Shown piece by piece: positions 3,466-25,453 of a stretch of DNA of 64,000 nucleotides (position 1 is its first letter; every line of letters starts with the position of its first letter). This DNA comes from Variovorax paradoxus (GTDB lineage Bacteria > Pseudomonadota > Gammaproteobacteria > Burkholderiales > Burkholderiaceae_C), in the NCBI GenBank assembly GCA_016806145.1, contig CP063166.1, positions 1,984,001 to 2,048,000 on the forward strand, written 5' to 3'. The notes below the pieces were generated by a model. That model searched no databases and was not told the DNA's origin. It saw only the letters and a list, made by a program, of their open reading frames with translations. The translations under genes were made by a program, and so were the position numbers.

Positions 3466-3490
3466 CTCCCTCCCCCGCTGGGGGAGGGAG
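3466..3490. repeat. Perfect 11-bp inverted repeat in an intergenic gap
   Basis: Arms CTCCCTCCCCC and GGGGGAGGGAG flank the trinucleotide GCT. There is no T-run, so it is not a convincing terminator. It fills most of the gap between the cyclase and the SDR gene and looks like the short C/G palindromes common between Comamonadaceae genes. Confidence 0.7.
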
Positions 3491-3509
3491 CAAGAAAGGG
3501 AGCGAGCGC

Positions 3510-4241: not shown

Positions 4242-4294
4242 ATCCCCACCACCGAGTTCCCGTCACCCACCCCCATCACTCCAGGAGAAGAAGC

Positions 4295-5533: not shown

Positions 5534-5588
5534 GCACGGCCCTTCGCGCGGCGCATCCCTTCCTTTCTCCCCAAGACACCACCCACCC

Positions 5589-6728: not shown

Positions 6729-6750
6729 GCGCCCGCACCTGACGCACGCC

Positions 6751-8543: not shown

Positions 8544-8590
8544 TTCCCTCCCTCGTTCCACTCCCCACCCTTTCCTCCAGGAGCTTCGAC

Positions 8591-9751
8591 ATGACCCGCT
8601 TGATGCAGTCCCTTCGCCACGCCGCCGTGCTCGCGCTGGCAGCCGGCCTCGGCGCCGCCGCCTTCGCGGCCGACCTCAAGGTCGGCCTGAGCGTGTCGCT
8701 GTCGGGCCCGAACTCCTCGCTGGGCGTGCCCTATGCCAAGGGCATGCAGGCCGCGCTGGCCTACAAGGGCGAGATCAACGGCCGCAAGGTGCAGCTGATC
8801 GTGCTCGACGACGGTTCCGACCCGACCACCGCGGGCCGCAATGCGCGCAAGCTGGTGGACGAGGAGAAGGTCGACGTGCTGATGGGCACCTCGGGCGTGC
8901 CGGCCGCGATCGCGATGGCGCAGGTCGGGCGCGATGCCAAGGTGCCGATGATCGGGCTCACGCCGATCCTGCTCGACCCGGCCGAGAACGGCTGGGTGAT
9001 GACGGTGGCGCAGCCCACGCAGCTGATGATCGACGCGGTGGTCGAGCGCATGAAGAAGGACGGCGTGAAGTCGGTCGGCTACATCGGCTTCTCCGACGCC
9101 TGGGGCGACCTGGTCTACAACGCGCTGATGAAGGCCGCGCCGGCCGCCGGCATCCAGGTGCTGGGCAACGAGCGCTATGCGCGCGCCGACGCCTCGGTCA
9201 CGGGCCAGGTGCTGAAGCTGCTCGCGATGAAGCCCGAGGCCGTGATGACCGGCGGCGCCGGCACGCCGGGCGCGCTGCCCTTTCTCGCGCTGCAGGAGCG
9301 CGGCTTCAAGGGCAAGGTGTACGGCCAGCACGGGTTGATCAACCCCGACTTCGTGCGGGTGGTCGGTGCCGCCGGCCAGGACGCGCTGATGCCCACCGGC
9401 CCGATCATCGTCGCCGAGCAGCTGCCGGCCGACCATCCCACGCGCAAGATCGGCCTGGAGTTCCGCAGCGTCTTCCAGAAGGTCAACAACGCGCCCACCA
9501 GCGACGCCTTCTCGGCCTATTCCTTCGACGGCTACCTGGTGTTCGCCGACGCGGCCGCGCGCGCGCTCACGAAGGCCGAGGCCGGCACGCCCGAGTTCCG
9601 CGTCGCGCTGCGCGACGCGATCTTCAGCACCAGGGAGGTCGTGGGCACGCACGGCGTCTACAACTTCAAGCCCGGCGATCTCTACGGCGTGGACCAGCGC
9701 GCGCGCGTGATCGTGAAGCTCGACAAGGGCCAGTGGAAGCTGGCGCCTTGA
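8591..9751 (+). CDS. Liv-type ABC transporter substrate-binding protein (paralogue 3)
   Basis: A 386-residue periplasmic binding protein with a signal peptide ending near AAFA and a mature start like paralogues 1 and 2. Conserved blocks include LDDGSDPTTAGRNARKLV and NERYARADASVTGQVLKLL. This copy is the cleanest reference for the insertion in paralogue 1, because it reads RALTKAEAGTP where paralogue 1 has 25 extra residues between L and T. It lies immediately upstream of the permease genes, so it is the most likely dedicated partner of that transporter. Confidence 0.9.
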   Translation: MTRLMQSLRHAAVLALAAGLGAAAFAADLKVGLSVSLSGPNSSLGVPYAKGMQAALAYKGEINGRKVQLIVLDDGSDPTTAGRNARKLVDEEKVDVLMGTSGVPAAIAMAQVGRDAKVPMIGLTPILLDPAENGWVMTVAQPTQLMIDAVVERMKKDGVKSVGYIGFSDAWGDLVYNALMKAAPAAGIQVLGNERYARADASVTGQVLKLLAMKPEAVMTGGAGTPGALPFLALQERGFKGKVYGQHGLINPDFVRVVGAAGQDALMPTGPIIVAEQLPADHPTRKIGLEFRSVFQKVNNAPTSDAFSAYSFDGYLVFADAAARALTKAEAGTPEFRVALRDAIFSTREVVGTHGVYNFKPGDLYGVDQRARVIVKLDKGQWKLAP

Positions 9752-9826
9752 GCGCGGCGTCCTCCATCCTCCATCCACCCAAAGCAAGCGAGAAGCGAGA
9801 GCGATGACGAAGCGAAGGACTGTGCA

Positions 9827-10882
9827 ATGACCTGGGACGTGGCCCTCATCCTGGGCATCGACGGGCTGGCCAACGGGGCCATCTACCTGCTGGCCGGGCT
9901 CGGCCTGGTGTTGATCTTCTCGGTGACCCGGGTGGTCTTCGTGCCCTTCGGCGACATCGCGGCCTTCGCCGCGCTGACGCTGGCGGCCTTCGAGACCGGC
10001 AAGCTGCCGCCGACCATCGGCCTGGTGGCCGTGCTCGCGGCGCTGGCCGTGCTGACCGAGGTCGGCAGCCTGGTGCGGCGCGGCGAGGCGCGGCGCATTC
10101 CGAAGGCCGTGCTGGCCTGGGGCGTGCTGCCGTTGGTGCCCTGCGCCATCGCCTGGGCCGCGGCGAGCGCCGGCGTGCCGGCGCCGGTGCAGCTCGCGGT
10201 GTCGGTGCTGCTGGTGGTGCCGGTGGCGCCGCTGCTGGCGCGCGTGGTGTTCCAGCCGATCGCCGATGCCTCGGTGCTGGTGCTGCTGATCGTCTCGCTC
10301 GCGCTGCACTTCCTGCTGTCGGGCCTGGGGCTGCTGTTCTTCGGGCCGGAAGGCTCGCGCACCAGCCCGCTGGCCTCGGGCACGCTCACGCTGGGCGACG
10401 GCTTCACCGTCAGCGGCCAGGTGATCCTGATGGTGAGCTCGGCGATCGTGCTCAGCGGCCTGTTCTTCCTGGTGTTCGAACGCACCGTGATGGGCAAGGC
10501 GCTGCGCGCCACGGCCGTCAACCGCGTCGGCGCGCGGCTGGTCGGCATCCGGCCCGCGCGCACCGCGCTGCTGGCCTACGGCTGCGCCTCGCTGCTGGCG
10601 GGGCTGATCGGCGTGCTGATCGCGCCGGTGACCACCATGTACTACGACTCGGGCTTCATCATCGGCCTCAAGGCCTTCGTGGCCGCCATCATCGGCGGGC
10701 TCGTGAGCTACCCGATGACCGCCATCGGCGCGCTGGCCGTCGGCGTGGTCGAGAGCTTCGCCTCGTTCTGGAGCGGCGCGCTCAAGGACGTGATCGTGTT
10801 CAGCCTGCTGATCCCGGTGCTGATGCTGCGCTCGTTCATGGCGCGGCACGTGGAAGAGGAAGAAGAGGAGGTGGACCAATGA
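9827..10882 (+). CDS. Branched-chain-type ABC transporter permease, LivH family
   Basis: A 351-residue polytopic inner-membrane protein. It begins with the LivH-like [21 protein letters not shown] helix and contains the family loop near [17 protein letters not shown], which contacts the ATPase. At ~350 residues it is longer than a typical LivH; the extra sequence lies between the first helices (~residues 75-130) and includes several hydrophobic segments. It ends in an acidic tail, EEEEEEVDQ. The stop overlaps the LivM start by ATGA. Together with LivM, LivG and LivF it should import the ligands of the three upstream binding proteins. Confidence 0.88.
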
Positions 10883-11973
10883 GCCGCCGCCCACTGATCC
10901 TCTGCGCCGTGGTGATCGCCGCGCTGGCCGTGGTGCCGGCGCTGTTCGGCAGCTTCACGGTCTCGCTGCTCAACGACATCGGCATCGGCGCGCTGGTCGC
11001 GCTCGGGCTGGTGCTGCTCACGGGCGTGGGCGGCGCCACCTCCTTCGGGCAGGCGGCCTTCGTCGGCATCGCGGCCTACGCCACGGCCTGGCTCAGCACC
11101 ACGCAGGGCTATTCGCCGTGGATCGGCCTCCTGTTCGCGCTGCTGCTGACCGGCCTCTCGGCGCTGGCCATCGGGCTGCTCACGCTGCGCCTGGGCGGGC
11201 ATTTCCTGCCGCTGTCGACCATCGCCTGGGGGCTGTCGATCGCGATGCTGTTCGGCAACGTCGATGCGCTGGGTCGCCACACCGGGCTGTCGAACATCCC
11301 GCCGCTGTTCATCGGCGGCTGGTCGCTGGCCGATCCGCGCGCCATGTACTACCTGATCTGGGCGATCGTCGGGCTGGCATTCCTGTTCAGCCACAACCTG
11401 CTGCGCTCGCGCCCGGGCCGTGCGATCCGCAGCCTGCGCGGCGGCGCGACCCTGCTGGCGAGCGTGGGCGCCGATGCCTACCGCGTGCGGCTGTCGCTGT
11501 TCGTGACGGCGGCGCTGTTCGCCGGGCTCGCGGGCTGGCTCTATGCGCACATGAACCGCTTCGTGAGCCCCTCGCCCTTCGACGTGCGCGCGAGCATCGA
11601 GTACCTGCTGATGGCGGTGGCCGGCGGGCTCGGCAGCCTGGTCGGCGCGCTGGTGGGCGCGGGCCTGGTGCTGGTGCTCAAGAACGGGCTGCAGGACGTG
11701 CTACCGCTGATCACCCAGCGCGCCGGCCAGCTCGAGGCGGTGGCCTTCGCGGTGCTGTTCATCGCGCTGCTGCACTTCGCGCGCGGCGGGCTGATGGGCT
11801 TCGTGCGGCGGCTGCGCGGGCGCAAGGGCCGGGCGCGGCACGCGCACCCGCGGCGCCGCTGGCGGCCGTCGAGCCGCTGCCGCACCGTGCGCTGCCGGCG
11901 CGCGGCGCGCCGATCCTCTCGGTGCAGGGCGCGGTCAAGCGCTTCGGCGGGCTGGTGGCGGTCAACGACGTGA
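10879..11973 (+). CDS. LivM-family ABC permease with frameshifted C-terminus
   Basis: Residues 1 to about 312 form a normal LivM permease with many hydrophobic helices and the [20 protein letters not shown] segment. After [15 protein letters not shown] the frame turns into Arg/Ser-rich nonsense until the stop at 11973, about 50 residues later. In the -1 frame the sequence continues as a Pro/Ala linker and then a complete LivG ATPase that has no ATG of its own. This is what a LivM-LivG fusion with one base lost around 11815-11860 would look like. A sequencing error, a real mutation and recoding are all possible. Confidence 0.75.
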
Positions 11974-12662
11974 GCTTCGACGTGGCGGCCGGCGAGATCG
12001 TGGGCCTGATCGGGCCCAACGGCGCCGGCAAGTCGACCATGTTCAACCTGCTGACCTGCACCCTGCCGATGAGCTCGGGCAGCGTGCGCTTCCTGGGCCA
12101 GGACATCGCCGGCATGCCGCAGCGCGAGGTGGCGCGGCTCGGGCTGGCGCGCACCTTCCAGCACGTGAAGCTGCGCCCGCAGATGAGCCTGCTCGACAAC
12201 GTGGCGCTGGGCGCGCATTCGCGCACGCGCTCGGGCGTGCTGCGCGCGGGGCTGCGGCTCGATCGCGCGGAGGAGCGGCAGATCCTGCAGGAGGCGCAGC
12301 GCCAGCTCGAGCGCATCGGCCTGGGCGATCGCGCGCACGAGCTCGCGGGCAGCCTGCCGCTGGGCACGCAGCGCATCCTCGAGATCGCGCGTGCGCTCGC
12401 GGCCGACCCGGTGCTGCTGGTGCTCGACGAGCCCGCGGCCGGCCTGCGCCGCAAGGAGAAGATGGCCCTGGGCGAGCTGCTGCGCAAGCTGCGCGACGAG
12501 GGCGTGACCATTCTGATCGTCGAACACGACATGGACTTCGTGATGAAACTCGTGGACCGCCTGGTGGTGATGAACTTCGGCGCCAAGCTGGTGGAGGGCG
12601 CGCCGGCCGCGGTGCGTGCCGACGAGCGGGTGCAGGCGGCCTATCTCGGGAGCGTGGCATGA
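11922..12662 (+). CDS. LivG-family ABC ATPase, start uncertain
   Basis: ATP-binding protein with Walker A GPNGAGKS, the Liv-specific region around [10 protein letters not shown], an ABC signature-like [17 protein letters not shown] and Walker [13 protein letters not shown]. It should energise the LivH/LivM permease pair. No ATG is available: GTG at 11922 would begin just inside the first beta strand. The preceding in-frame sequence (residues like [21 protein letters not shown]) resembles a linker. It was therefore probably the C-terminal half of a LivM-LivG fusion. The stop overlaps the LivF start by ATGA. Confidence 0.75.
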
Positions 12663-13399
12663 GCACGACGACCCCGATGCTGGAGATCGGCGACCTGCAC
12701 GTTTCCTATGGGCAGGTCGATGCGGTGCGCGGCGTGTCGCTTGCGATGCGCCCGGGGCAGATCGTCTCGGTGATCGGCCCCAATGGCGCCGGCAAGACCA
12801 CGCTGCTCGCGGCCGCGATGGGCCTGCTGCCGTCGAAGGGCGTGCTGCGCTTCGAGGGCGAGGACCTGCATGGCCTCGACGTGGAGGCGCGCGTGGAGCG
12901 CGGCCTGTGCCTGGTGCCCGAGAAGCGCGAGCTGTTCGGCGAGCTCTCGGTGCTCGACAACCTGCAGCTCGGCGCCTTCTCGCGCCGGCTGCGCGGCAGC
13001 GTGCTCAAGAGCCGGCTGCAGGGCGTGTACGACCGCTTCCCGCGGCTGGCCGAGCGCCGCGCGCAGCGCGCCGACACGCTCTCGGGCGGCGAGCGCCAGA
13101 TGCTGGCCGTCGGGCGCGCGCTGATGTCCTCGCCGCGCCTGTTGATGCTCGACGAGCCCAGCCTCGGGCTCGCGCCGCTGATCGTGCGCGACATTCTCGC
13201 GATCGTGCGCAAGCTGCGCGAGGACGGCGTGTCGATCCTGCTGGTGGAGCAGAACGCGCGCGCGGCGCTCGAATCCTCCGACCACGGCTACGTGCTCGAA
13301 ACGGGCGAGATCGCGCTCGATGGCGCCTCGCAGGACCTGGCCTGCGATCCGCGCGTGCAGGCCACCTACCTCGGCGGGGGCACGCACGATGACGACTGA
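12659..13399 (+). CDS. LivF-family ABC transporter ATPase
   Basis: A 246-residue ATPase with Walker [10 protein letters not shown], the LivF hallmark [18 protein letters not shown], an [15 protein letters not shown] signature and Walker [15 protein letters not shown]. It pairs with the LivG-type ATPase to drive import. It overlaps the LivG stop by ATGA and the acyl-CoA synthetase start by 11 bp, so transporter and activating enzyme are encoded as one translationally linked block. Confidence 0.9.
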
Positions 13400-14969
13400 G
13401 CCGCACGCGCTGCCGCCCGCGCGCCGCACCTTGCCGGCGATGCTCGAGCGGCAGGCGGCGCTGTTCGGCGACAAGCCGCTGCTCGCGATCGCGGGGCGGC
13501 AATGGGTGCATGCCGATGCGCGCGCGGCCGCCGCATCGCGCGCCGGCGCGCTGGCAGCGGCGGGCGTGGCGCGCGGCGATCGCGTGGCGCTGATGAGCGG
13601 CAACCGCCTCGAGGTGCTCGAGACGCTCGGCGGCTGCGGCTGGCTGGGTGCTGCGATGGTGCCGATCAACACCGCTTCGATGGCGCCGCAGATTGAGTAC
13701 TTCCTGGCCGACAGCGCGGCGCGGCTGCTGGTGATCGAGAGTGCCTTCCTCGACCGGCTGGCCGGCGTCGACCTCGCGCGCACCGCGCTGCGCACGGTGT
13801 GGGTGATCGGCGAGGGCGAGATCGCGCTCGAGGGCGTGGCGGTGAAGGCCTGGCCGGCCGATGGCGAGGCGATCGCCGCGGCCGAGGTGCAGCCGGGCGA
13901 CACGCTCGCGATCCTCTACACCTCGGGCACCACCGGCCCGGCCAAGGGCGTGACCTGCCCGCATGCGCAGTACTACTGGTGGGGCGTGAACAGCGCAGCC
14001 GTGCTCGGCGTGGGCGCCGACGACGTGCTGTGCACCACCTTGCCGCTGTTCCACATCAATGCGCTCAACACCTTCGCGCAGGCCGCGATCACCGGCTGCC
14101 GGGTGGTGTTCGAGGCGCGCTTCTCGGCCTCGGGCTTCTGGGAGGCGATGCGCGCCCACGAGGCCACCGTGGTCTACCTGCTGGGCGCGATGGTGCCGAT
14201 CTTGCTGGCCCAGCCCGAGGGACCGGGCGAGCGCGCGCACCGGGTGCGCGTGGGCCTGGGCCCGGGGGTGCCGGCGCATGCGATGCAGAGCTTCCTGGAG
14301 CGCACGGGCGTGCGGCTGCTCGAGGGCTACGGCTCGACCGAGACCAACTTCGTCATCAGCACCGCGCCGGATTCCCCGCGCGGCGGCGTGATGGGCTGGG
14401 TGCGCCCGGGCTTCGAGGCGCGCGTGGCCGACGCGCACGACGTGGAACTGCCCGACGGCGAGGCCGGCGAGCTGCTGCTGCGCGCGAGCGAGCCGCATGC
14501 CTTCGCGAGCGGCTACTTCAACCTGCCGGCCAAGACCGTCGAGGCCTGGCGCAACCTGTGGTTCCACACCGGCGACCGCGTGGTGCGCGATGCCGACGGC
14601 GCCTTCCGCTTCGTCGACCGGCTCAAGGACGCGATCCGCCGGCGCGGCGAGAACATCTCCTCCTTCGAGGTCGAGCAGGTGCTGCTGAGCCATCCGGGCG
14701 TGGCGGCGGTGGCGGTCTACCCGGTGCGCTCGGAGCTGGCCGAGGACGAGGTGATGGCGGCGCTGATCGCGCGACCCGGCACGGCGGTGGCGCCCGCCGA
14801 GCTCGCGACCTTCTGCGAGGCGCGGCTGCCGTACTTCGCGGTGCCGCGCTACATCGACATCCTCGAGGACCTGCCGCGCACCGAGAACGGCAAGGTCCAG
14901 AAGTACAAGCTGCGCGAGCGCGGCGTGACGCCCGGCACCTGGGACCGGCAGCCGGCGCGGCGCACCTAG
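13389..14969 (+). CDS. AMP-binding acyl/aryl-CoA synthetase
   Basis: This 526-residue adenylate-forming enzyme has a P-loop LYTSGTTGPAKGV near residue 177, the A5-type YGSTETN motif, FHTGDRVVRDADGAFRFVDR with the hinge Asp, and a C-terminal catalytic Lys in TENGKVQKYKLR. It should convert a carboxylic acid, ATP and CoA to the acyl-CoA, AMP and PPi. Its position directly after the transporter suggests that it traps the imported acid as a CoA thioester. The ATG at 13389 was preferred over an upstream in-frame start inside livF. The acid cannot be deduced; bile-acid, crotonobetaine and aryl-acid ligases share this architecture. Confidence 0.88.
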   Translation: MTTEPHALPPARRTLPAMLERQAALFGDKPLLAIAGRQWVHADARAAAASRAGALAAAGVARGDRVALMSGNRLEVLETLGGCGWLGAAMVPINTASMAPQIEYFLADSAARLLVIESAFLDRLAGVDLARTALRTVWVIGEGEIALEGVAVKAWPADGEAIAAAEVQPGDTLAILYTSGTTGPAKGVTCPHAQYYWWGVNSAAVLGVGADDVLCTTLPLFHINALNTFAQAAITGCRVVFEARFSASGFWEAMRAHEATVVYLLGAMVPILLAQPEGPGERAHRVRVGLGPGVPAHAMQSFLERTGVRLLEGYGSTETNFVISTAPDSPRGGVMGWVRPGFEARVADAHDVELPDGEAGELLLRASEPHAFASGYFNLPAKTVEAWRNLWFHTGDRVVRDADGAFRFVDRLKDAIRRRGENISSFEVEQVLLSHPGVAAVAVYPVRSELAEDEVMAALIARPGTAVAPAELATFCEARLPYFAVPRYIDILEDLPRTENGKVQKYKLRERGVTPGTWDRQPARRT

Positions 14970-15001
14970 GCCGGCGGCGGGTGTCCAGGGCCGCGAAACG
15001 C

Positions 15002-15021
15002 TAGAATGGTTTAGGACTAAA
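15002..15021 (+). promoter_or_regulatory. AT-rich promoter with candidate MarR operator
   Basis: In an otherwise G+C-rich stretch, TAGAAT (15002-15007) is a good -10 hexamer. It is followed by the dyad TTTAG-GA-CTAAA (15010-15021), which would cover the transcription start. The SDR at 15032 and the marR-like gene at 15808 lie directly downstream, so autorepression by that MarR protein is the simplest reading. The -35 is poor. Confidence 0.45.
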
Positions 15022-15031
15022 TATTATTGCC

Positions 15032-15811
15032 ATGCAAGCAAATTCTCTTTCCGGCCGCCATGCCCTGGTCACCGGTGCCGCGCGCGGCATCGGCGCCGAG
15101 ATCGCGCGCACCCTCGCGGCCGAGGGCGCGGTGCTCACGCTGCTGGGGCGCGATCGCGAGGCGCTGCAGCGCGTGGCCGACACGCTGCCCGCTTCCGCCT
15201 CGCACCGCGTGGTGGCGGCCGACGTGGCCGACCCGGCGGCGGTGCAGCAGGCCTTCGCGCAGGCGCGCGCCGCGCTCGGGCCGCTCGCGATCCTGGTCAA
15301 CAACGCCGGCGCGGCCGAGAGCGCGCCCTTCCTCAAGACCTCGGTCGAGCTCTGGCAGCGCATGCTGTCGGTCAACCTCACGGGCAGCTTCCTGTGCACC
15401 CAGGCGGCGCTGCCCGACATGCTCGAGGCCGGCTGGGGCCGCATCGTCAACATCGCGAGCACCGCGGGGCAGAAGGGCTATGCCTACGTCGCCGCCTACA
15501 CCGCGGCCAAGCACGGCGTGATCGGGCTGACGCGCTCGCTGGCGCTCGAGGTGGCGCGCAAGGGCGTGACGGTGAACGCGGTCTGCCCGGGCTACACCGA
15601 CACCGACATCCTGCGCAACAGCGTCGCCAACGTGGTCGGCAAGACCGGCCGCAGCGAGGCCGACGCGCTGGCGGAGTTCTCGAGCGTGAATCCGCAGCGC
15701 CGCATCGTGCAGCCCTCCGAGGTGGCCGACGCGGTGCGCTGGCTGTGCGGCGAGGGCGCCGCCTCGGTCAACGGGCAGTCGATCTCGGTCTCGGGTGGGG
15801 AGGTCACATGA
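15032..15811 (+). CDS. SDR family oxidoreductase (3-hydroxyacyl-CoA dehydrogenase-like)
   Basis: This 259-residue classical SDR has [12 protein letters not shown], a catalytic Ser in NIASTAG and YTAAK. It resembles 3-oxoacyl-ACP reductases and the hydroxyacyl-CoA dehydrogenases of alicyclic or aromatic CoA pathways. In this setting a dehydrogenase acting on a CoA-bound beta-hydroxy intermediate is plausible, but that is inferred. The gene has its own AT-rich promoter and operator-like dyad, so it starts a transcription unit with the MarR and thioesterase genes. The ATG at 15032 has no clear Shine-Dalgarno sequence. Confidence 0.87.
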
Positions 15812-16338
15812 AGCACAACGACGCCTCGCATGCCGCGCTGAGCGACGCCGAGGAACTGGGCCACGAGGCGCGCGCGCGCACCGAGGACCATGCGGCCCTC
15901 AAGCTGTGGCTGCGCATGCTGGCCAGCACCACCCAGATCGAGGCCGAGATCCGGCGCCGGCTGCGCGAGCGCTTCGGCATCTCGCTGGCGCGCTTCGACT
16001 ACATGGCGCAGCTCTACCGCCACAGGGAAGGGCTGAAGATGCGCGTGCTCTCGCGCTACCTGATGGTGACCGGCGGCAACGTCACCGGCCTCACCGACGA
16101 GCTGGAGCGCGAGGGCGTGGTGGCGCGCGCCCCCAGCCCCGAGGACCGCCGGGCCTGGATCGTGAGCCTCACGCCCAAGGGCCGGGCCAGCTTCGAGGCG
16201 ATGGCGAGCGAGCACGAACAGTGGATCCTCGAGATGTTCTCGGGCCTGGACATGAAGACCATCAAGCAGATGCATGCTCAGCTAGGCGAACTGCGCGTGC
16301 ACGTGATGCGCAGCGAGCCCGCGGGCGAGGAGGGCTGA
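15808..16338 (+). CDS. MarR family transcriptional regulator
   Basis: A 176-residue winged-helix regulator. The MarR recognition helix region lies around [30 protein letters not shown] and the wing around [16 protein letters not shown]. MarR proteins bind short palindromes as dimers and are released by aromatic acids or their CoA thioesters. It is coupled by ATGA overlap to the SDR and shares that gene's promoter, where a TTTAG/CTAAA dyad sits at 15010-15021. It is therefore likely to control its own operon and perhaps the upstream catabolic genes. Confidence 0.88.
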
Positions 16339-16341
16339 GCC

Positions 16342-16785
16342 ATGGCCGAGACGCCCGCGCGCTTCGCCGAATTCAGCCGGCCGCGGCTGATCCGCTTCTC
16401 GGACTGCGACCCGGCCGGCATCGTCTTCTACCCGCAGTACTTCGTGATGCTCAACGGGCTGGTCGAGGACTGGGTCAACGAGGAACTCGGCATCGGCTAC
16501 GACGCGCTGGTCACCGGCCGCCGCGTCGGGCTGCCGACCGTGAAGCTCGAGGCCGATTTCCGCGCCGTGAGCCGCATGGGCGACCGGGTGGCGCTGGGGC
16601 TCGCGGTCGAGCGGCTCGGTTCGCGCTCCCTGAGCTTGCGGCTGCGCTGCTTCGAGCCGGTGTCGGGCGAAGTGCGCATGCAGGTCAGCCAGGTGCTGGT
16701 GACCACTTCGCTGCAAACCCACAAGGCGATCGAGATTCCGGCCGACCTGCGCGCGGCGATCCTGAAGGGCGCGCTGCCTTCCTAA
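16342..16785 (+). CDS. Acyl-CoA thioesterase, 4-hydroxybenzoyl-CoA thioesterase type
   Basis: This 147-residue hot-dog fold protein has the signature FSDCDPAGIVFYPQYF near residues 19-34, with the catalytic Asp in the DCDPAG loop. It hydrolyses an acyl- or aroyl-CoA to the free acid and CoA. It follows the MarR gene by 3 bp and closes the catabolic block, where it could release a pathway product or recycle CoA from dead-end thioesters. No export signal is seen. A YbgC/FcbC-type family assignment is safe; the substrate is not. Confidence 0.87.
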   Translation: MAETPARFAEFSRPRLIRFSDCDPAGIVFYPQYFVMLNGLVEDWVNEELGIGYDALVTGRRVGLPTVKLEADFRAVSRMGDRVALGLAVERLGSRSLSLRLRCFEPVSGEVRMQVSQVLVTTSLQTHKAIEIPADLRAAILKGALPS

Positions 16786-16901
16786 GCCCCGGGGAATGTC
16801 GATCCCTCCAAAGGAGGAGTTCCCCCGGCTTGTACTACCAGCGTACTGCTCCCACAATTCCGGGCCTGGGAAAATAAGGCGGAGTTGAATGGGAACGGTT
16901 G

Positions 16902-17546
16902 ATGAGAATCCTGCTGGTTGACGATCACGGCCTCGTGCGCGAGGGCGTGGCACTTCTTTTGCGCTCGCTCGATCCCAAGATCGGCGTGCACCAGACCGCC
17001 GACATCCACGATGCCATCGCGGCGATGCGCACGCACGGCCCGTTCGACATCGTGCTGCTCGACCTCGAGATGCCCGGCATGCGCGAGCTCGATACGCTGC
17101 ACCTGTTCCGCGGCCAGTTCCCCGAGCAGGCGGTGGTCGTGCTGTCGGCCAACGAAGACCCCAACACGGTACGCCGCGCGATCGACGACGGCGCCATGGG
17201 CTATGTCAAGAAGTCGCTCGATCCGGCGACCATGATGCAGGCGCTGCGCGTGGTGCTCGACGACGGCATCTACGTGCCGCCGGTGTGCCTCGAGCCGCCG
17301 CGCACCGACGAGCCCTCGCCGGCCGACCGGCTCGCGAGCCTGCGGCTGTCGCCGCGCCAGGAAGAGGTGCTGCTGCGCCTGGCCCACGGCAAGTCGAACA
17401 AGGCGATCGCGCGCGAGCTCAACATCTCCGACACCACCGTGAAGTCGCACCTGAAGGTGGTGTTCGAGATCCTCGACGTCCACAGCCGCACCCAGGCCAT
17501 GTACGAGCTCTCCCGCCTCGGCTGGCGCGCGATGGAAGCCGGATGA
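16902..17546 (+). CDS. NarL/LuxR-type two-component response regulator
   Basis: This 214-residue regulator has an N-terminal receiver with acidic pair D7/D8, phospho-acceptor D54 (LLDLEMPG) and a conserved Lys in GYVKKSLDP. A C-terminal LuxR helix-turn-helix follows (LSPRQEEVLLRLAHGKSNKAIARE). A TTG two codons upstream is also possible; ATG at 16902 is preferred. The stop overlaps the hybrid kinase start, so the pair is co-translated. The leader upstream contains CCTCC-AAA-GGAGG and two GTAC-containing blocks (about 16808-16850) that could be binding sites. The likely partner is the adjacent kinase. Confidence 0.9.
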   Translation: MRILLVDDHGLVREGVALLLRSLDPKIGVHQTADIHDAIAAMRTHGPFDIVLLDLEMPGMRELDTLHLFRGQFPEQAVVVLSANEDPNTVRRAIDDGAMGYVKKSLDPATMMQALRVVLDDGIYVPPVCLEPPRTDEPSPADRLASLRLSPRQEEVLLRLAHGKSNKAIARELNISDTTVKSHLKVVFEILDVHSRTQAMYELSRLGWRAMEAG

Positions 17547-19300
17547 GGAACCGGGCCGCGGCGCTGGTCGCCGAGCAGGTCGGGTTGCTCGCGACCCAGT
17601 CGCGCAACGCCGTCCTCGGCTTGCTGGTCGGCTGCTCCTTCGTTTCCGCGATCCTCGCGCGGCATGTGTCGTGGGTGCTGATCGGCGCCTGGCTCGCGCT
17701 GTTCATCGGCGCCAATGCCTACCGCATGCGGCTGGGCGCGCGCCTGCTCAGCGACCGCGAGCCGCGCGACGCCGCGGCGCTGAGCAAGTTCTTCTACATC
17801 GCGCTGGTCAACGGCATCTGGATCGGCCTGCTGCCCGTGATGTTCTTCGGCGTGCTGCCCGACGAGTCGCGGCTCGCGCTCACCATCATCGTGCTGCTCG
17901 CGGCGGCCGGCGGCGCCGCCACCTATGCCTCGTTCGCGCGCGGCTACCTGTGCTTCCTGCTGGTCGGGGTGCCGCTGGTGGCGCTGGGCTGGGGGCTGCA
18001 TGGCGGCCCGCGCGCCTGGGCGGTGGTGCTGTCTCTGCTGATGTACGCGGTGGTGATGGCGCGCTTCTCGACCTATCTGGCGAGCGTGTTCGAGCGCTCG
18101 GTGCTGATCCGCTTCGAGGCCGACGCGCAGCGCGAGCAGGCCGAGCGGATGCGCGTGATCGCCGAGGAGGAGCGCGGCAAGGCCGAGGAGGCGCGCCACG
18201 CGGCGGAAGAAGCGAGCGTTTCGAAGTCGCGCTTCCTGGCCAATGCCAGCCACGACCTGCGCCAGCCGGCGCAGGCGCTCGCGCTCTACACGGCGGTGCT
18301 CACGCACAACGCCGAGACCGACGAGCAGCGCCAGATCGCGCGCAGCATCGCCGAGGCCAGCCGCGTGCTCGGCGACCTGCTCGACAACCTGCTCGACATG
18401 TCGCGCCTCGATGCCGGCGCGGTCCAGCCGCGCGCCCAGGCGGTCGACATCGGCCAGATGCTGGCGCGCCAGGGCACCGAGGCGCGCGCCATGCTGGCCG
18501 GGCGCAACGTGCGGGTGGAAGTGGAGGGCGGCGCCTTCGTGGCCCAGACCGACCCGGTGCTGCTCGAGCGCGCGCTGCGCAACATCGTCGGCAACGCGGT
18601 GAAGTTCACCACCTCGGGACTGATCGCGATCCGCGCCCACATCGTCGGCCCGGTGATCCGCTTCGAGGTGGAAGACACCGGCCAGGGCATCGCGACCGAG
18701 CACCAGACGCTGATCTTCGAGGAGTTCTTCCAGGTCGACAACAAGGAGCGCGACCGGGCCCGCGGCCTCGGCCTCGGGCTGTCGATCGTGCGCCGGCTGA
18801 TCCACATGCTCGGCGGCGGGGTGAAGGTGGAGTCCGAGGCCGGCAAGGGCTCGAAGTTCACGCTGACCATTCCCGCGCTGTTCACGCGCGCGCCCGACGA
18901 ATCCGACCTGCGGCCGCGTCCCTCGGTGCCGATGCCCGACCTGCGCGGCCGGCGCGTGCTGGTGATCGACGACGAGCAGATGGTGAGCAACAGCCTGAGC
19001 GCGCTGCTCCAGACCTGGGGTGCCGACGTCGACACCGCCGACGGCCTGCATGCCGCGCTCGCGCTCGGGCCGCCCGGCAACTGGCAGCTGTGCCTGTGCG
19101 ACCTGCGCCTGCGCGGCGGCGAGGACGGCATCTCCACGGCGGCGCGGCTCAACCGCGACGCGCCCGACCTGCCGATCGTCTTCATCACGGGCGACACCGC
19201 CCCCGCGCGCATCGAGCAGGCGACCCGCACCGGCCGGCCGCTGATGCACAAGCCGGTGGACGAACTCCAGCTCGCAAGGCAGGTGCGCGCCTTGCTCTGA
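17543..19300 (+). CDS. Membrane hybrid histidine kinase with C-terminal receiver
   Basis: A 585-residue sensor. The first ~190 residues hold several hydrophobic helices, with no obvious periplasmic domain, then a short coiled coil rich in Glu/Arg. The H-box is NASHDLRQP with phospho-acceptor H237. The ATPase has N-box NIVGNAVKFT, G1 VEDTGQGI and G2 GLGLGLSIV. The C-terminal receiver carries D520 in LCDLRLRGG. It overlaps the response regulator by ATGA, and the giant oxidoreductase-hydrolase-phosphatase gene follows 66 bp later. The signal is unknown; a membrane-embedded sensor suggests a lipid, redox or membrane cue. Confidence 0.9.
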   Translation: MRNRAAALVAEQVGLLATQSRNAVLGLLVGCSFVSAILARHVSWVLIGAWLALFIGANAYRMRLGARLLSDREPRDAAALSKFFYIALVNGIWIGLLPVMFFGVLPDESRLALTIIVLLAAAGGAATYASFARGYLCFLLVGVPLVALGWGLHGGPRAWAVVLSLLMYAVVMARFSTYLASVFERSVLIRFEADAQREQAERMRVIAEEERGKAEEARHAAEEASVSKSRFLANASHDLRQPAQALALYTAVLTHNAETDEQRQIARSIAEASRVLGDLLDNLLDMSRLDAGAVQPRAQAVDIGQMLARQGTEARAMLAGRNVRVEVEGGAFVAQTDPVLLERALRNIVGNAVKFTTSGLIAIRAHIVGPVIRFEVEDTGQGIATEHQTLIFEEFFQVDNKERDRARGLGLGLSIVRRLIHMLGGGVKVESEAGKGSKFTLTIPALFTRAPDESDLRPRPSVPMPDLRGRRVLVIDDEQMVSNSLSALLQTWGADVDTADGLHAALALGPPGNWQLCLCDLRLRGGEDGISTAARLNRDAPDLPIVFITGDTAPARIEQATRTGRPLMHKPVDELQLARQVRALL

Positions 19301-19366
19301 GTCCGGATCCGCCCCAGGTCCACCGTCGGCGGGCCACGATTTCCTCTCTCCCGTTCCCGCCGTCCC

Positions 19367-22300
19367 ATGTCCTCGCCCACCGCGCAGCCGCTGTCCATTC
19401 CCTTCGACGAATGGAAGCCTCCCGAGCCGCTGCAGCTCGATGCCGTCGTGATCGGTTCGGGCTATGGCGGCAGCGTGGCCGCGCTGCGGCTCGCGCAGGC
19501 AGGGCGGCGCGTGGTGCTGCTCGAGCGCGGCTCGGAGTTCCTGCCGGGCGAGTTCGCCAACGACGTGGGCCAGCTGCCCAAGTACCTGCGCTTCCAAGGG
19601 CCGCAGGGGCCGATGGGCAGCCCCTGCGGGTTGTTCGAATGGCGCCTCGGGCCGGGCATGGCTTCGATGGTGGCCAACGGCTTCGGCGGCGGCAGCCTGA
19701 TCAATGCCGGCGTGCTGGTGCAGCCCGACGACGACGTCTTCGCCCAGCCCGCGTGGCCGGCCCAGATCCGCCATGCGCTCGACGACGACAGGCCCGGCCT
19801 GCGCCTGCCGTCGGCCTTCGCGCGCGCCCGCGAGGAGCTGCAGGGCACGCGCTTCTCGATCCGCGCCGCGGACGGCACCGAGGCCGGCCCGCTGCCCAAG
19901 TCGCGCGCGCTCGCGAAGCTCGGCGAGGCGCTGCAGCGCGACGAGACATTGCGCAAGCACGCGCCGCGGGTGCAGGCGGCGGTGCTCACCATCGACCCGG
20001 CGCGCTGCAGCCACTGCGGCGACTGCTTCACCGGCTGCAACACGCCCGGCGCCAAGCACACCCTGCCCACCACCTACCTGAAGCAGGCGGGCGAGCGGGG
20101 CGTGCAGTTCGTGAGCCGCTGCACGGTCTACGCCCTCGAGCCGCAGCGCGAGACCGGCCGCTGGCGCTTCACCGCGGTGGAGACCGAACGCAGCCGCGAC
20201 TTGCGCAACATGGGCGACCTGGTGACGCAGCACGGCCGCAGCTTCGAGGCGGCGCTGGTGGTGGTCGCGGCCGGCACCTTCGGCAGCACCGAGCTGCTGA
20301 TGCGTTCGCAGAAGGTGCACGAGCATTTCACGCTGTCGCCCACGCTGGGCACGCGCGTGAGCGCGAACGGCGACAGCGTGAGCGTGATCGCCGACCTCGA
20401 GACGCCGGTGGACAACGTGGGCCGCGGCGCGCTTCCCGAGGCCAAGGCCGGCCAGCCCGTGGGACCGACGATCACGACCCTGCTCGACCTGCGCGGCAGC
20501 GGCGACGACCGGCCGCCGCTGCAGGACCGCGTGATGCTGCAGGACGGCGCCGTGCCCGGCCCGCTGTCGCGTCTGTACGAGGAGATGCTGGCCATCGCCT
20601 GGACCCTGCGCCACATCGGCGCGCGGGCGCCGTCGCCGCGCGCGCACGGCCGCGGCATCGACCCGCTGGCCGCTTCGCCCGAACTCGCCGCCCACAGCCA
20701 GCTGCTGCTGGCGATGGGCCACGACAACTCGCAGGGGCGGGCGGTCTGGGTGCCCGAGATGGACGGCATCGCCCCCTACTGGCCGCGGCCGCAGGAGGCG
20801 CCCACCTACGCCGCGCAGCAGCGCATCTTCGACGCGGGCACGAAGCGCGACGGCGTGCACATGCACCTGCCGACCTGGCAGGCGCTGCCGCCGGGCGCAG
20901 CCACCTTGCTGTCGGGACCGAAGCCCGACGCGCTCGCGATGACGGTGCATCCGCTCGGCGGCTGCCCGATGGGCGACAACCACGACGCGGGCGTGGTCGA
21001 CCACCTGGGTCGGGTCTGGCGCGGCGACAACGAGCTCTGGCACGGCCTCTACGTGCTCGACGGCTCGATCGTCCCGACCTCGCTGGGCTGCAATCCGCTG
21101 TGGACCATCACCGCGCTGGCGGAACGCGCGATGGCGCACCTGGCGCCCGGGCTGCGCGTGGCCGGCCCGACCGCCACGCCGACGCCCGTGCCGCAGCGCG
21201 GCCTGCCGCGCTCCACCGCGGGCTGGTCGCGGCCCGGACCGATGCGGGTGGAAGCACGCGCGCGCGAGCGGCTGGAGTGCCGCGCGCTGCCGCTGCGGGG
21301 GCCGCTGCGCCGCATGCTGGGCACGCCGACCGCCGACTGCGACATGGTGGTCAGCATGCACACCTTCGACTGGCAGCAGCTGTGGAACGACGCGCGGCAT
21401 CGCTTCACGGGCGTGCGCGGGCTGCTGCGCTTCGAACCCCTGGCCGAAGGCGCGGCGCCCGATGCCAGGCCCGCCGGCGAGCGCTTCGTCAACTACAGGA
21501 TCCGCGGCGGCGAGGTCTCCATCCTCGCGGTGGAGCCCGGCGGGCCGCTCGCGACCCTGCGGCGCATCGCCAGCATGCCGCGCACCGTGCTGACATGGTT
21601 CACCCTGCGCGGCTACCTCGACTGGCAGCGCGGCGACACCGAGATCACCTTCGAGCGCAGCCGCAACATGTTCTGGGCCTGGTGGGCCGCCACCGAGATC
21701 CGGCACGTGGAGTACGACCTCAGGCTGACGCTGCGCCCGGGCGGCATGCCGACGCCCGATCCGGTGCGGCGGCTGCGGCTGCGCGGCACCAAGGAGGTCG
21801 TCTATGCCGCGAGCTGGGCGCAGCTCGCGGGGCACGGGCTGCGGCGGCTGCGGCAGTGGAACTGGCCCGCCGATCGTCCGGGCAAGGTCGTGCCGGCCGA
21901 CCTGCGGCCCGACCTGTTCACCCAGCTCACCTGCCCGGTCATCACGCTCGATGCCGACGACCGGCCCGCGCCGTGGTGGTCGCCGTGGCGCAACCGTGCC
22001 GCGAAAGCGCGCTTCGCGTTCGACGTGGCGCGCGCGGTGCGCGACACCCCGATCGAACTGCTCGGCGGCGCCGACGCCAGCTCGGCGATGGGCACGCTGG
22101 TGGCCTATCCGGCGCTGCTGGCGCGCTTCGCGCTGCAGACACGCATGCTCGATTTCCGCCTGCCCGACTACGGCGGCAGCCCGCTGGTCGACATGGCCAG
22201 CCCCGAGGACCTCAAGCTGCGCGGCGAGGCCTGCGGCGGCACGCAGGGCGACGTCCATCCGCAGGCGCATTCGCTGTGGGTGCGGCGCGGCCGCTCGTCG

Positions 22301-25300
22301 AGCGACGACGGCACCGAGGCGGTGGAGAACGTGCAGCTGCGGCTGTGGCGCTACCGGCGGCCCGCTGCCGACGGGCTGCCCGAGGTCCTCGGCGGCCAGT
22401 GGTGCGGCGTGCCCGTGCGGCGCGTGCGCTCGGTGCTGCTGACCCATGCCTTCGGCATGTCGGGCCACACCTTCAGCTTCAAGGGCACGAGGCAGAACTT
22501 CGCCGAGCATCTGTACGGCCTGGGCTGGGAGGTCTGGGTGCTCGACACCCGCCTGAGCCCGCGCTCGCGGGCCTCGCAGGAGCCGGGCACCGCCGACCAG
22601 GTCGCGATGGTCGACATTCCGGAGGCGGTCGATTTCGTGCTCGACCTGCTGCGCGCCGAGCGCGACCGGGTCGTCGGACCCGAGGCCGGACTGCCGCTGC
22701 AGCTCTATGCCTTCGGCCAGTGCCTCGGCGCGGCGGCCTTCCAGATGGCGCTGCTGGCGGGGCGGCTGTCCTATCCGATCGAGAGCGCCGGCTACGTGTC
22801 GGCCACCGGTGTGCGGCCGCTGCTGCCGAAGCTCGCGGGCCTGGTGAGCGCGCAGACGCACCTGTTCACGGTCGGTTCGCGCTCTTCTCAGGGCAAGACC
22901 TGGCTGCCGGCCTTCATCCGCAACCTGGCCGGCCGCACCACGGTGCCGCTGGCGGTGCGCGGGCCGGTGGAGTCGCTGGTCGAGTCGCTGGTCGATCGCC
23001 TGTTCGCCGCGCTGCCGGTGCCGCCCGGCGAGCACTGCCCGGGCGAGGGCACGCTGGGCCGGCCGCACGACGACGACTGCGCGACCTGCCGGCGCGTGCG
23101 CTTCCTCGACGCCGAGCTGTTCAAGCACCGCAACCTCAACGCCCGAACCCACCGCGAACTGCCCAAGCTGTTCGGCAACGCCTCGGTGCGCGTGTTCGCG
23201 CACGCGGCGCGCTTCGTCGAGTACGAGCGACTGGTCAGCGAGGACGGCTTCAACGTCTACGCCAACGACAGCGCGATCGCGCGCCACATGGCGCTGCCGA
23301 TCCGTTTCGTGCACGGCTGCGAGAACGAGCTGTTCGACAAGGAAGGGGCGCTGCGTTCGTCGCTGCAGTTCGCGCAGATCCATCCCGAGTGGGTGCCGCT
23401 GTTCGGCAAGGCGGCCGAGGGGCAGCCGCCGCACATGTGCGACCTGATCGCGGGCTATGGCCACCTCGATCCGCTGATCGGCCAGGCGGCGATGGATCGC
23501 GTCGACGGCGAGGCCAGCCCCTACGAGCGGCTGGCCGCCTTGCTGAACCAGGCCTGGGGGGCCGAGGAACATGGTCCGGCCCTCTCTCCATCGGAAGCTG
23601 GCGAGGCGCTCCCGCCGGCGAGCCCGCATCCGAACCACGAGGTGCGCTTTCCGCGCGCCGGCCCATGGGTCGGGCCGATGGAGCCGATGGAGGTCGACCC
23701 GCAACTGGCCCTGTACTGCGCCATGCCGCCGGGCCCGGCGCGCAGCGTGCGCGTGGCCTTCGTGGTCGACGACACCGCCGCCGACGCGCTGCTGAGCCGC
23801 GGACTGGCGGCCAGCGCCATCGTGCACCTGGGGCCGCGCGTCTACCGCGTGCCGCTGGAGATCGTCGACTTTCCCGCGCCGATGGTGGCGCGCGACGGCT
23901 TCCTGCTGCCGCCGCCGCGGCGGCCGTGGGTGCTCGGCAGCGCCCAGGGCCGCACCGACGGCAGCAGCGCGATCCGCGTGGCCTGCGGCAGCATTCCGCT
24001 GCCCGAGGGCGGGGCGTGGGAGCGCGCGCGCATCGAGTGCGTGTCGCATGCGCCCGCGCTCGACGCGCGGACCGCCAGCCGGCCGCTGCAGCGGCTGCCG
24101 GATGAGGTGGTGGAAGGGCCGCCGGTGGCGTTCTCGGCGGCCGTTGAGGCGGCGGAGCTGCTGGCGCTGCAGGGCTCGATCCGCTTCGCGGCCGAAGCGG
24201 CGCTGCGCGAGCGCGAGGTGGGGCGCGGGCCCTTTCCCGCCTCGCTGTCGCACCAGCGCCGCAATGCGCCGCTGGCCGAGCACCGCTGGATCCGGCTGCG
24301 GTCACGCATGCTGGCCGCGCGCGACGGCGCGCTGTGCGTCGCCCTCGGCAGCTGCAGCTATCCGGGCTTCTCCTTCGACAGCGAGCCGGCCTCGGCCTCG
24401 TTCGAGCGGCTGCTGAAGACGGTGCGCAGGCTCGGGGCGGACGGGCCCGAGATGCTGTTCATGCTCGGCGACCAGATCTATGCCGACGCGACCGGCGGCA
24501 TCATCGATTCGACCAACCCCGTCGAGCGCTACACCGACCGCCACCAGCGGGCCTTCGCGCGGCCCGCGCTGCAGAAGCTGCTGGCGCGGGTGCCGTCGGT
24601 GTGCACGGTCGACGACCACGAGTTCACCGACAACTATCCGCTGGCCCGCCCGCTGTTCAAGCCGCATCTGGCGCGCCGAGGCTACAGCCGCCTGCGCGAG
24701 GCGCATGCGCTGCAGGCCGCGCAGAACGCGCTGACCGCCTACCAGCTCATGCATGGCAGCGAGAGCATGCGCCGCTTCGGCTTCGCGCGCTACGAGCGCG
24801 GCGGCGTGCGCTTCTTCGTGGCCGACACGCGGCGCTGGCGCAAGGCGGCGGCGCACAGCGAGCCGGGCAGGCCGGTCGCGGCGCGCACGCTGTCGGACGA
24901 GGCGCGCGCGGCCTTCCATGCCTGGGTGGAGGAGGGCCGCGATGGCGACGACTTCCATTGCCTGCTCACGGGCAGCGTGCTGCTGCCGGGCTTGGTGCCG
25001 GGCTGCGATCCCGCGAACCCCGGTCCGCCGGATTCGATGCAGGCCGCGCCCACCGAACGCGCCGAATTGCTGGGCCAACTGGCCGATGCGGTGCCGGGGC
25101 GCTTCGCCTGCATCTCGGGCGACTACCACCTGAGCTTCTCGGGCGCGGTCACGGTGGATGGCGTTCGCGTCGGCGCGGTGATGCTCGCGCCGGCCTTCTA
25201 CGCGCCCCTGCCGTATGCCAACTGCTCGCCCGGCGATCTGTGGCTCGACGAGGCCTTGACGCTGCCCGGCGGCCGCACGCTGCGCCTCGAGGCGATCGAC

Positions 25301-25453
25301 GGCGAACTGCCGCAGCGCGGATCGGGCTACGGGCTGCTGCGCTTCGAGCGGCGCGCCGAGGGCTGGTCGACCGCGCTGTCGACCGACCTGCTGGTGCTCG
25401 AGGAGGGCGCGACCAGGAAGCGCTTCGACTGGCCCAGCGTCGACCTGCGGTAG
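19367..25453 (+). CDS. Giant fusion: GMC oxidoreductase, alpha/beta hydrolase, PhoD-like phosphatase
   Basis: One uninterrupted 2028-residue protein. Residues ~20-600 are a GMC flavoprotein of the cholesterol-oxidase type: FAD loop GSGYGG at 30-35, a four-Cys motif C214/C217/C220/C224 and active-site H528 (HPLGGCP) and N576. Residues ~620-1000 are a less clear region. Residues ~1015-1380 form an alpha/beta hydrolase whose elbow is GQCLG, with nucleophile C1119 and candidate His H1366. Residues ~1655-2028 match PhoD-type metallophosphatases: GSCSYPG, MLGDQIYAD, VDDHEFTDNY and SGDYH near 1916-1921. No signal peptide is evident. GMC-hydrolase fusions are known in sterol- and lipid-related proteins; a third PhoD module is unusual. 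Oxidation, ester or thioester cleavage and phosphate release on one lipid-like substrate is inference. Confidence 0.85.
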   Translation: MSSPTAQPLSIPFDEWKPPEPLQLDAVVIGSGYGGSVAALRLAQAGRRVVLLERGSEFLPGEFANDVGQLPKYLRFQGPQGPMGSPCGLFEWRLGPGMASMVANGFGGGSLINAGVLVQPDDDVFAQPAWPAQIRHALDDDRPGLRLPSAFARAREELQGTRFSIRAADGTEAGPLPKSRALAKLGEALQRDETLRKHAPRVQAAVLTIDPARCSHCGDCFTGCNTPGAKHTLPTTYLKQAGERGVQFVSRCTVYALEPQRETGRWRFTAVETERSRDLRNMGDLVTQHGRSFEAALVVVAAGTFGSTELLMRSQKVHEHFTLSPTLGTRVSANGDSVSVIADLETPVDNVGRGALPEAKAGQPVGPTITTLLDLRGSGDDRPPLQDRVMLQDGAVPGPLSRLYEEMLAIAWTLRHIGARAPSPRAHGRGIDPLAASPELAAHSQLLLAMGHDNSQGRAVWVPEMDGIAPYWPRPQEAPTYAAQQRIFDAGTKRDGVHMHLPTWQALPPGAATLLSGPKPDALAMTVHPLGGCPMGDNHDAGVVDHLGRVWRGDNELWHGLYVLDGSIVPTSLGCNPLWTITALAERAMAHLAPGLRVAGPTATPTPVPQRGLPRSTAGWSRPGPMRVEARARERLECRALPLRGPLRRMLGTPTADCDMVVSMHTFDWQQLWNDARHRFTGVRGLLRFEPLAEGAAPDARPAGERFVNYRIRGGEVSILAVEPGGPLATLRRIASMPRTVLTWFTLRGYLDWQRGDTEITFERSRNMFWAWWAATEIRHVEYDLRLTLRPGGMPTPDPVRRLRLRGTKEVVYAASWAQLAGHGLRRLRQWNWPADRPGKVVPADLRPDLFTQLTCPVITLDADDRPAPWWSPWRNRAAKARFAFDVARAVRDTPIELLGGADASSAMGTLVAYPALLARFALQTRMLDFRLPDYGGSPLVDMASPEDLKLRGEACGGTQGDVHPQAHSLWVRRGRSSSDDGTEAVENVQLRLWRYRRPAADGLPEVLGGQWCGVPVRRVRSVLLTHAFGMSGHTFSFKGTRQNFAEHLYGLGWEVWVLDTRLSPRSRASQEPGTADQVAMVDIPEAVDFVLDLLRAERDRVVGPEAGLPLQLYAFGQCLGAAAFQMALLAGRLSYPIESAGYVSATGVRPLLPKLAGLVSAQTHLFTVGSRSSQGKTWLPAFIRNLAGRTTVPLAVRGPVESLVESLVDRLFAALPVPPGEHCPGEGTLGRPHDDDCATCRRVRFLDAELFKHRNLNARTHRELPKLFGNASVRVFAHAARFVEYERLVSEDGFNVYANDSAIARHMALPIRFVHGCENELFDKEGALRSSLQFAQIHPEWVPLFGKAAEGQPPHMCDLIAGYGHLDPLIGQAAMDRVDGEASPYERLAALLNQAWGAEEHGPALSPSEAGEALPPASPHPNHEVRFPRAGPWVGPMEPMEVDPQLALYCAMPPGPARSVRVAFVVDDTAADALLSRGLAASAIVHLGPRVYRVPLEIVDFPAPMVARDGFLLPPPRRPWVLGSAQGRTDGSSAIRVACGSIPLPEGGAWERARIECVSHAPALDARTASRPLQRLPDEVVEGPPVAFSAAVEAAELLALQGSIRFAAEAALREREVGRGPFPASLSHQRRNAPLAEHRWIRLRSRMLAARDGALCVALGSCSYPGFSFDSEPASASFERLLKTVRRLGADGPEMLFMLGDQIYADATGGIIDSTNPVERYTDRHQRAFARPALQKLLARVPSVCTVDDHEFTDNYPLARPLFKPHLARRGYSRLREAHALQAAQNALTAYQLMHGSESMRRFGFARYERGGVRFFVADTRRWRKAAAHSEPGRPVAARTLSDEARAAFHAWVEEGRDGDDFHCLLTGSVLLPGLVPGCDPANPGPPDSMQAAPTERAELLGQLADAVPGRFACISGDYHLSFSGAVTVDGVRVGAVMLAPAFYAPLPYANCSPGDLWLDEALTLPGGRTLRLEAIDGELPQRGSGYGLLRFERRAEGWSTALSTDLLVLEEGATRKRFDWPSVDLR

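What the first reader, a model, noticed from the sequence alone, without database searches (positions are those of the whole stretch)
19367..25453. Single 2028-residue protein joining flavin oxidoreductase, Cys hydrolase and PhoD-like phosphatase
One unbroken ORF carries motifs of three enzyme classes in order: GMC oxidoreductase (GSGYGG, HPLGGC, active-site Asn), alpha/beta hydrolase (GQCLG elbow) and PhoD metallophosphatase (GDQIYAD, DDHEFTDNY, SGDYH). GMC-hydrolase fusions exist, but I know of no described protein with the third PhoD module. A co-directional histidine kinase pair sits directly upstream. A multi-step enzyme for a phosphorylated or esterified lipid or sterol is an attractive but unproven idea.
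Basis: partly seen in the sequence, partly recalled or inferred. Interest (0 to 1): 0.82.

Follow-up and report, generated by a model that had tools for sequence, protein, structure and literature searches.

The report
Three-enzyme lipid-type fusion protein
One bacterial gene joins a flavin dehydrogenase, an unusual cysteine-type lipase relative and a phosphatase-like enzyme in a single 2028-residue protein; the joint protein is real, occurs in many proteobacteria, and relatives without the joint often keep the same kinds of enzyme as neighbouring genes, which suggests that the enzymes act together on one still unknown, probably lipid-like, compound.

The parts
19367..25453 (+). 2028-aa three-enzyme protein GMC-MID-hydrolase-PhoD
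19367..21166 (+). GMC flavin oxidoreductase module (aa 1-600), cholesterol-oxidase-like; His528 57 of 57 and Asn576 55 of 57 aligned rows
20006..20038 (+). CxxCxxCxxxC motif (Cys214, 217, 220, 224), ferredoxin-like; 57, 56, 57, 57 of 57 rows
   Evidence: weak ferredoxin-type matches; motif in 237 of 240 listed homologues
21167..22396 (+). MID module (aa 601-1010), no Pfam match; a stand-alone 221-aa gene in L100 and fused to a patatin-type lipase in L099
22397..23626 (+). alpha/beta hydrolase module with acid-lipase fold (aa 1011-1420)
22715..22729 (+). nucleophile elbow GQCLG, Cys1119 (62 of 62 rows)
23324..23326 (+). Asn1320 at the presumed acid position of the triad (58 of 62 rows; Ser in 4)
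   Evidence: assignment as the acid position is inferred from motif spacing, not aligned by a tool
23462..23464 (+). presumed catalytic His1366 (62 of 62 rows), aligned by profile with the HLD motif of acid lipases (weak second stretch)
23627..24301 (+). region N-terminal to the phosphatase core (aa 1421-1645), beta-rich in the model
   Evidence: aligned with PhoD and plant purple acid phosphatases from residue 1 of the model
24302..25450 (+). PhoD-like metallophosphoesterase core (aa 1646-2028); Cys1663, Asp1702, Asp1707, Asp1749, Asp1750, His1751, His1921 in 61 of 61 rows
16899..17546 (+). NarL/LuxR-type response regulator (start uncertain, 16899 or 16959)
   Evidence: homologue within 5 kb in 30 of 46 fused loci
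17543..19300 (+). hybrid histidine kinase with receiver domain, 66 bases upstream of the fusion gene
   Evidence: homologue within 1.2 kb in 35 of 46 fused loci

Best explanation
A cytoplasmic multienzyme that processes one lipid-type compound carrying an acyl (or thio)ester, a hydroxyl and a phosphate. Proposed work: the PhoD module cleaves a phospho(di)ester, the MID and acid-lipase-like module binds the lipid and removes or transfers an acyl group through a Cys-His-Asn triad, and the GMC module oxidises the alcohol, passing electrons from FAD to an Fe-S cluster and on to an unknown carrier rather than only to oxygen. A dedicated sensor (here a NarL-type two-component pair) controls the gene. 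Shown: single frame, module identity, conserved motifs, recurring gene partnership, fusions on one side of the tree. Inferred: substrate class, order of steps, cluster presence and type, electron route, cytoplasmic site, regulation.
Against: No substrate evidence of any kind. Pfam sees no hydrolase in the window protein. Asn1320 is Ser in 4 of 62 rows. The four-Cys motif gives only sub-threshold ferredoxin matches (16.9 of 25 bits; best E 0.0097). The phosphoesterase partners were found with queries taken from those same loci, six of the ten loci are one genus, L077's own match is just under Pfam's cut-off (19.5 of 21.5), and no random-gene control was run. L098 and L100 showed no phosphoesterase. 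The window's upstream cluster looks like ring-compound catabolism, not lipid metabolism. No electron-acceptor gene was recognised next to the window gene; one Fe-S oxidoreductase lies by a GMC gene in L083 only among the neighbours scanned. The L027 split could be a frameshift in a metagenome assembly.
Confidence: 0.5

Rival explanations
1. The Cys module is an acyltransferase, working like PHA synthases with a covalent acyl-Cys intermediate, so the protein builds rather than degrades an ester or polyester.
Confidence: 0.25
2. Sterol-ester catabolism: steryl ester cleavage by the lipase module, sterol oxidation by GMC, phosphate removal by PhoD.
For: GMC resembles cholesterol oxidase and the hydrolase resembles lysosomal cholesteryl ester hydrolase; 'cholesterol oxidase' is a frequent source name among the listed two-module proteins; the upstream cluster holds a thiolase-like protein that matches lipid-transfer-protein models below cut-off.
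Against: Cholesterol oxidase equivalog score 141 of 850 needed; the four Cys are absent from the two cholesterol oxidase alignments shown; no sterol-specific gene recognised in the neighbours scanned; a phosphate step has no place in sterol catabolism as I recall it.
Confidence: 0.12
3. The enzyme makes or destroys a lipid-derived signal sensed by the partner sensor genes.
For: Different sensors recur beside the family: hybrid histidine kinase in 35 of 46 fused loci, homologues of a 7TM-GGDEF-EAL protein in L032, L038, L039 and of an adenylate-cyclase/AAA protein in L068, L071, L080, L085.
Against: Sensors beside catabolic genes are common; no receptor-ligand evidence.
Confidence: 0.15
4. The fusion is a sequencing or assembly artefact.
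For: None found.
Against: Coding signal continuous; a 94%-identical full-length protein; fused in many separate assemblies.
Confidence: 0.01

Closest known systems
Two-module GMC-alpha/beta hydrolase proteins of about 1140 aa, given names such as 'cholesterol oxidase' or 'alpha/beta fold hydrolase' by sources
   Same: Same GMC, MID and Cys hydrolase modules; of 120 listed, 119 have the four-Cys motif and 119 the letters C/N/H
   Different: No PhoD module in 120 of 120 listed; in the loci I examined a separate phosphoesterase gene is often near
Type I (GMC) cholesterol oxidase of Streptomyces type (1b4v, 4u2l)
   Same: GMC family and His/Asn pair; best PDB match
   Different: No four-Cys motif at the aligned place in the two alignments shown; single enzyme; equivalog score not reached
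Burkholderia cepacia FAD glucose dehydrogenase alpha subunit (6a2u), 3Fe-4S by Cys212, Cys218, Cys222 (PMC6719666, passages read)
   Same: GMC flavoprotein with a Cys cluster in a similar part of the chain; profile match E 9.7e-23
   Different: Cys spacing differs (ferredoxin-like four-Cys here); no hitchhiker or cytochrome gene recognised among the immediate neighbours of the window gene
Lysosomal and gastric acid lipases (6v7n, 1hlg, 1k8q)
   Different: Cys for Ser, mostly Asn at the presumed acid position; part of a fusion
Bacillus PhoD (2yeq)
   Different: No export signal seen; C-terminal module of a larger enzyme

Membership tests
GMC oxidoreductase (PF00732/PF05199) | Both Pfam domains above cut-off | tested here: met
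   38.3 and 51.5 bits against 23 and 24.6
GMC oxidoreductase (PF00732/PF05199) | Dinucleotide motif and His/Asn active-site pair | tested here: met
   GSGYGG, His528 57 of 57, Asn576 55 of 57 rows
Cholesterol oxidase (NF058674 equivalog) | Model score of at least 850 | tested here: not met
   141 bits
BcGDH-type Fe-S flavin dehydrogenase complex | Cys cluster binding Fe-S beside FAD | tested here: inconclusive
   Four conserved Cys with ferredoxin-like spacing; residue-level alignment with 6a2u was not obtained and no cluster was measured
BcGDH-type Fe-S flavin dehydrogenase complex | Hitchhiker and multihaem cytochrome subunit genes alongside | tested here: not met
   Immediate window neighbours are a response regulator, a histidine kinase and a downstream ORF without Pfam match; genes elsewhere were not sought
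Acid lipase family | Acid-lipase fold | tested here: met
Acid lipase family | Ser nucleophile | tested here: not met
   Cys in 62 of 62 rows, 237 of 238
PHA synthase | Cys nucleophile | tested here: met
PHA synthase | Closest fold and family model | tested here: inconclusive
PhoD (PF09423) | Pfam score above cut-off and PhoD fold | tested here: met
PhoD (PF09423) | Tat export signal of classical PhoD (recalled) | tested here: not met
   Module is internal to a protein whose N-terminus shows no signal by eye and by hydropathy; no signal predictor was available
PhoD (PF09423) | Phosphodiesterase activity and metal content | not testable with these tools
   Needs protein

The most novel reading that the evidence does not exclude
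A large, cross-phylum and experimentally unexplored lipid-processing system often named 'cholesterol oxidase': an Fe-S flavin dehydrogenase coupled to a papain-like Cys-His-Asn enzyme on an acid-lipase fold, with a phosphoesterase as third partner that is either PhoD (fused or adjacent) or a calcineurin-type protein. The window protein is its complete single-chain form.
Probability: 0.4. Interest if true: 0.78.

Novelty: new variant of a known kind. Interest (0 to 1): 0.6.

Why it matters
A search with a two-module relative gave 5282 matches among 7991 scored candidates. In the 120 listed, 'cholesterol oxidase' is a frequent source name, yet 119 have Cys/Asn/His where an acid lipase would have its Ser triad and 119 have a ferredoxin-like Cys motif in the flavin module. 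The name therefore probably misleads for much of this family. The fused form points to a third step, phosphoester cleavage, and so gives a testable three-reaction pathway in one probably soluble protein. One expression and activity screen could help to assign the whole family.

Tried and rejected
Shadow ORFs of 2144 and 2337 aa: no Pfam match and displaced GC pattern.

A four-way fusion with the histidine kinase in L021, L051 and L092 (ORFs of 2190 to 2565 aa) was suspected; Pfam shows no kinase in those three frames, and in L021 and L051, the two that I read, the upstream part looks like an out-of-frame shadow. The first kinase count (31 of 46) missed such cases and was replaced by 35 of 46.

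Relation of MID to the acetoacetate-decarboxylase-like neighbour in L099 or to the P450 protein of L106: no profile match.

A PhoD search with alignment A3 returned only 4 proteins, so the nearest stand-alone PhoD family is not established. Residue-level alignment with 6a2u was not obtained. PDB searches with two unassigned neighbour proteins gave nothing at E<=0.1. Genus name of the host: not established; two same-genus fused genes (G029, G030) group with Variovorax sp. J22R193 on the tree, so Variovorax is a guess.

Rows left out: alignments A1, A2, A3, A4 have 36, 62, 61 and 57 rows (35 of 120 listed homologues plus query; 61 of 63, 60 of 63 and 56 of 76 available locus segments plus window). 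L002-L020 were not counted among the 77. The tree is a quick LG+G4 tree without mixture and with SH-aLRT only. In one search two of 240 listed proteins did not align at all three triad places.
Full report
What is there. ORF 19367-25453 on the + strand encodes 2028 residues without a stop. Third-position GC is 0.942 over the ORF and at least 0.88 in each 300-base step apart from the last. Its order is GMC oxidoreductase (aa 1-600), MID (601-1010), alpha/beta hydrolase (1011-1420), a beta-rich stretch and PhoD (1421-2028). The own genome shows one match, this gene.

Is it a family. A protein search gave 724 matches at E<=0.001 among 7990 scored candidates, of which 120 were listed; by module profiles 117 of those 120 hold GMC, hydrolase and PhoD. 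Of these 77, 52 are GMC-hydrolase-PhoD in one frame, 9 have GMC-hydrolase with an adjacent PhoD gene, 1 has GMC, hydrolase and PhoD as three neighbouring frames, 11 show GMC alone (4 of them cut by a contig end), 2 are hydrolase-PhoD cut by a contig end, and 2 are GMC-hydrolase without PhoD. Hosts of the 77 include Ramlibacter, Rubrivivax, Hydrogenophaga, Pseudacidovorax, Massilia, Hahella, Solimonas, Mesorhizobium and Chelatococcus. In the window's genus (own plus 36 genomes) the fused form is in the own genome, G029 and G030, and G021 has one 1711-aa frame with GMC, hydrolase and PhoD matches. Among 399 genomes sampled from the order, 6 (own included) have a hydrolase match in a frame of 1855 aa or more; own and four others (L113-L116) were checked with module profiles and are fused, G091 was not fetched. 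So the gene is sparse in the order.

History. On a tree of 93 GMC modules all 57 fused rows lie with five split-PhoD rows and four truncated rows on one side of a branch with 99% SH-aLRT support; the 27 rows on the other side include none fused but four with an adjacent PhoD gene, plus L081 with separate neighbouring frames. The simplest reading is one PhoD fusion and several later splits that kept the genes together; the counts cannot prove direction, and the split of L027 could be an assembly frameshift. The window gene groups with Ramlibacter pallidus, not with the fused genes of G029 and G030 from its own genus, which suggests transfer between lineages.

The flavin module. It matches cholesterol oxidase best but reaches 141 of the 850 bits that NCBI asks for that name. 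Cys214, 217, 220 and 224 are conserved in 57, 56, 57 and 57 of 57 rows. The stretch resembles ferredoxin-type sites, weakly by score (Fer4_6 at 16.9 of 25 bits; best E 0.0097). The two cholesterol oxidase alignments shown lack these Cys. In B. cepacia glucose dehydrogenase a 3Fe-4S cluster of Cys212, 218 and 222 lies about 12-13 A from the flavin and passes electrons on (PMC6719666, passages read). A similar role here is inferred.

The hydrolase module. The AlphaFold model of MID plus hydrolase has mean pLDDT 88.9. The best structures are human lysosomal acid lipase and gastric lipases. The profile alignment sets the Cys of the elbow on the lipase Ser and, in a weak second stretch, the His of the HLD motif on the lipase His. 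Cys and His are in 62 of 62 rows; Asn1320, at the presumed acid position, in 58 of 62, with Ser in 4. In listed homologues of both searches with all three positions aligned, the letters were CNH in 237 and DNH in 1 of 238. A Cys-His-Asn set is unusual on this fold as far as I recall.

The PhoD module. Model pLDDT 85.9; best structure Bacillus PhoD, then purple acid phosphatases. Ligand-type residues, including Cys1663, are in 61 of 61 rows. No strongly hydrophobic stretch is found and no signal is seen by eye at the N-terminus, so the protein is probably cytoplasmic.

The phosphoesterase partner. Ten two-module rows without PhoD were examined. Six from the window's genus (L106-L111) have homologous calcineurin-type genes directly beside GMC. 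L102 has one directly downstream, L077 one directly upstream that falls just short of the Pfam cut-off, and L075 a homologue of that one about 5.5 kb away. L103 showed none among four neighbours scanned nor with a home-made profile. With that profile the only fused locus that matched was L115, itself a seed. L052 and L096 have both PhoD and a calcineurin-type gene; L101 and L117 have one near a separate hydrolase gene; L098 and L100 showed none. This looks like replacement of one phosphoesterase by another, with the caveats that the seeds came from the same loci and that no random-gene control was run.

The regulator. Of 46 fused loci with at least 2 kb upstream, 35 have a homologue of the window's hybrid kinase within 1.2 kb, in 29 directly upstream on the same strand, and 30 have the NarL-type regulator within 5 kb. 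Of the 11 others, L032, L038 and L039 have homologues of a 7TM-GGDEF-EAL protein and L068, L071, L080, L085 of an adenylate-cyclase/AAA protein; L042, L049, L063 and L078 remain without a named sensor. The window's own run of genes at 462-16785 looks like a ring-compound (aromatic-acid type) catabolic cluster: Rieske dioxygenase subunits, thiolase-like protein, SDRs, ABC transporter, CoA ligase, MarR regulator, thioesterase (the leading NCBI models are below their cut-offs). It is probably a separate unit, but a link is not excluded.

MID. It occurs alone in L100 and behind a patatin-type lipase in L099, beside a Cys hydrolase of the same family. A lipid-binding or docking role is a guess.

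What is known. Searches of the paper library for combinations of these module names listed no paper on this protein as far as titles and abstract starts show; the library lacks most subscription journals. Two-module proteins are plentiful: 5282 matches among 7991 scored candidates, with names such as cholesterol oxidase among the 120 listed. The finding is therefore a new variant of a family that I could trace only by sequence.

Noticed in passing
window 462-16785: Co-directional catabolic cluster, probably for an aromatic or other ring compound: thiolase-like and SDR proteins, ring-hydroxylating dioxygenase alpha and beta, branched-chain-type ABC transporter, CoA ligase, MarR regulator, thioesterase.
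   Followed up: partly
L099:94-3741: Patatin-type lipase fused to the MID module, next to an acetoacetate-decarboxylase-like protein and a stand-alone Cys hydrolase of the same family.
   Followed up: partly
L083:7747-11746: In a Myxococcales MAG the four-Cys GMC gene follows a 700-aa Fe-S oxidoreductase with CCG domains, a possible electron acceptor.
   Followed up: no
L106:3155-5311 and L108:3048-4550: Cytochrome P450 encoded divergently beside two-module genes of the window's genus; L109 matches only the first 212 residues of the L106 frame.
   Followed up: no
L106-L111: A large regulator (Trans_reg_C, AAA and TPR domains in L106) has homologues convergent to the two-module gene in all six loci.
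   Followed up: no
window 17270-24283 (-) and 17671-24105 (+): Shadow ORFs of 2337 and 2144 aa created by the 94% GC third positions.
   Followed up: yes
L077:8068-9918 and L075:18852-20630: About 600-aa proteins with only borderline calcineurin-like match near two-module genes in Azospirillum and Mycobacterium; the rest of the chain is unassigned.
   Followed up: partly
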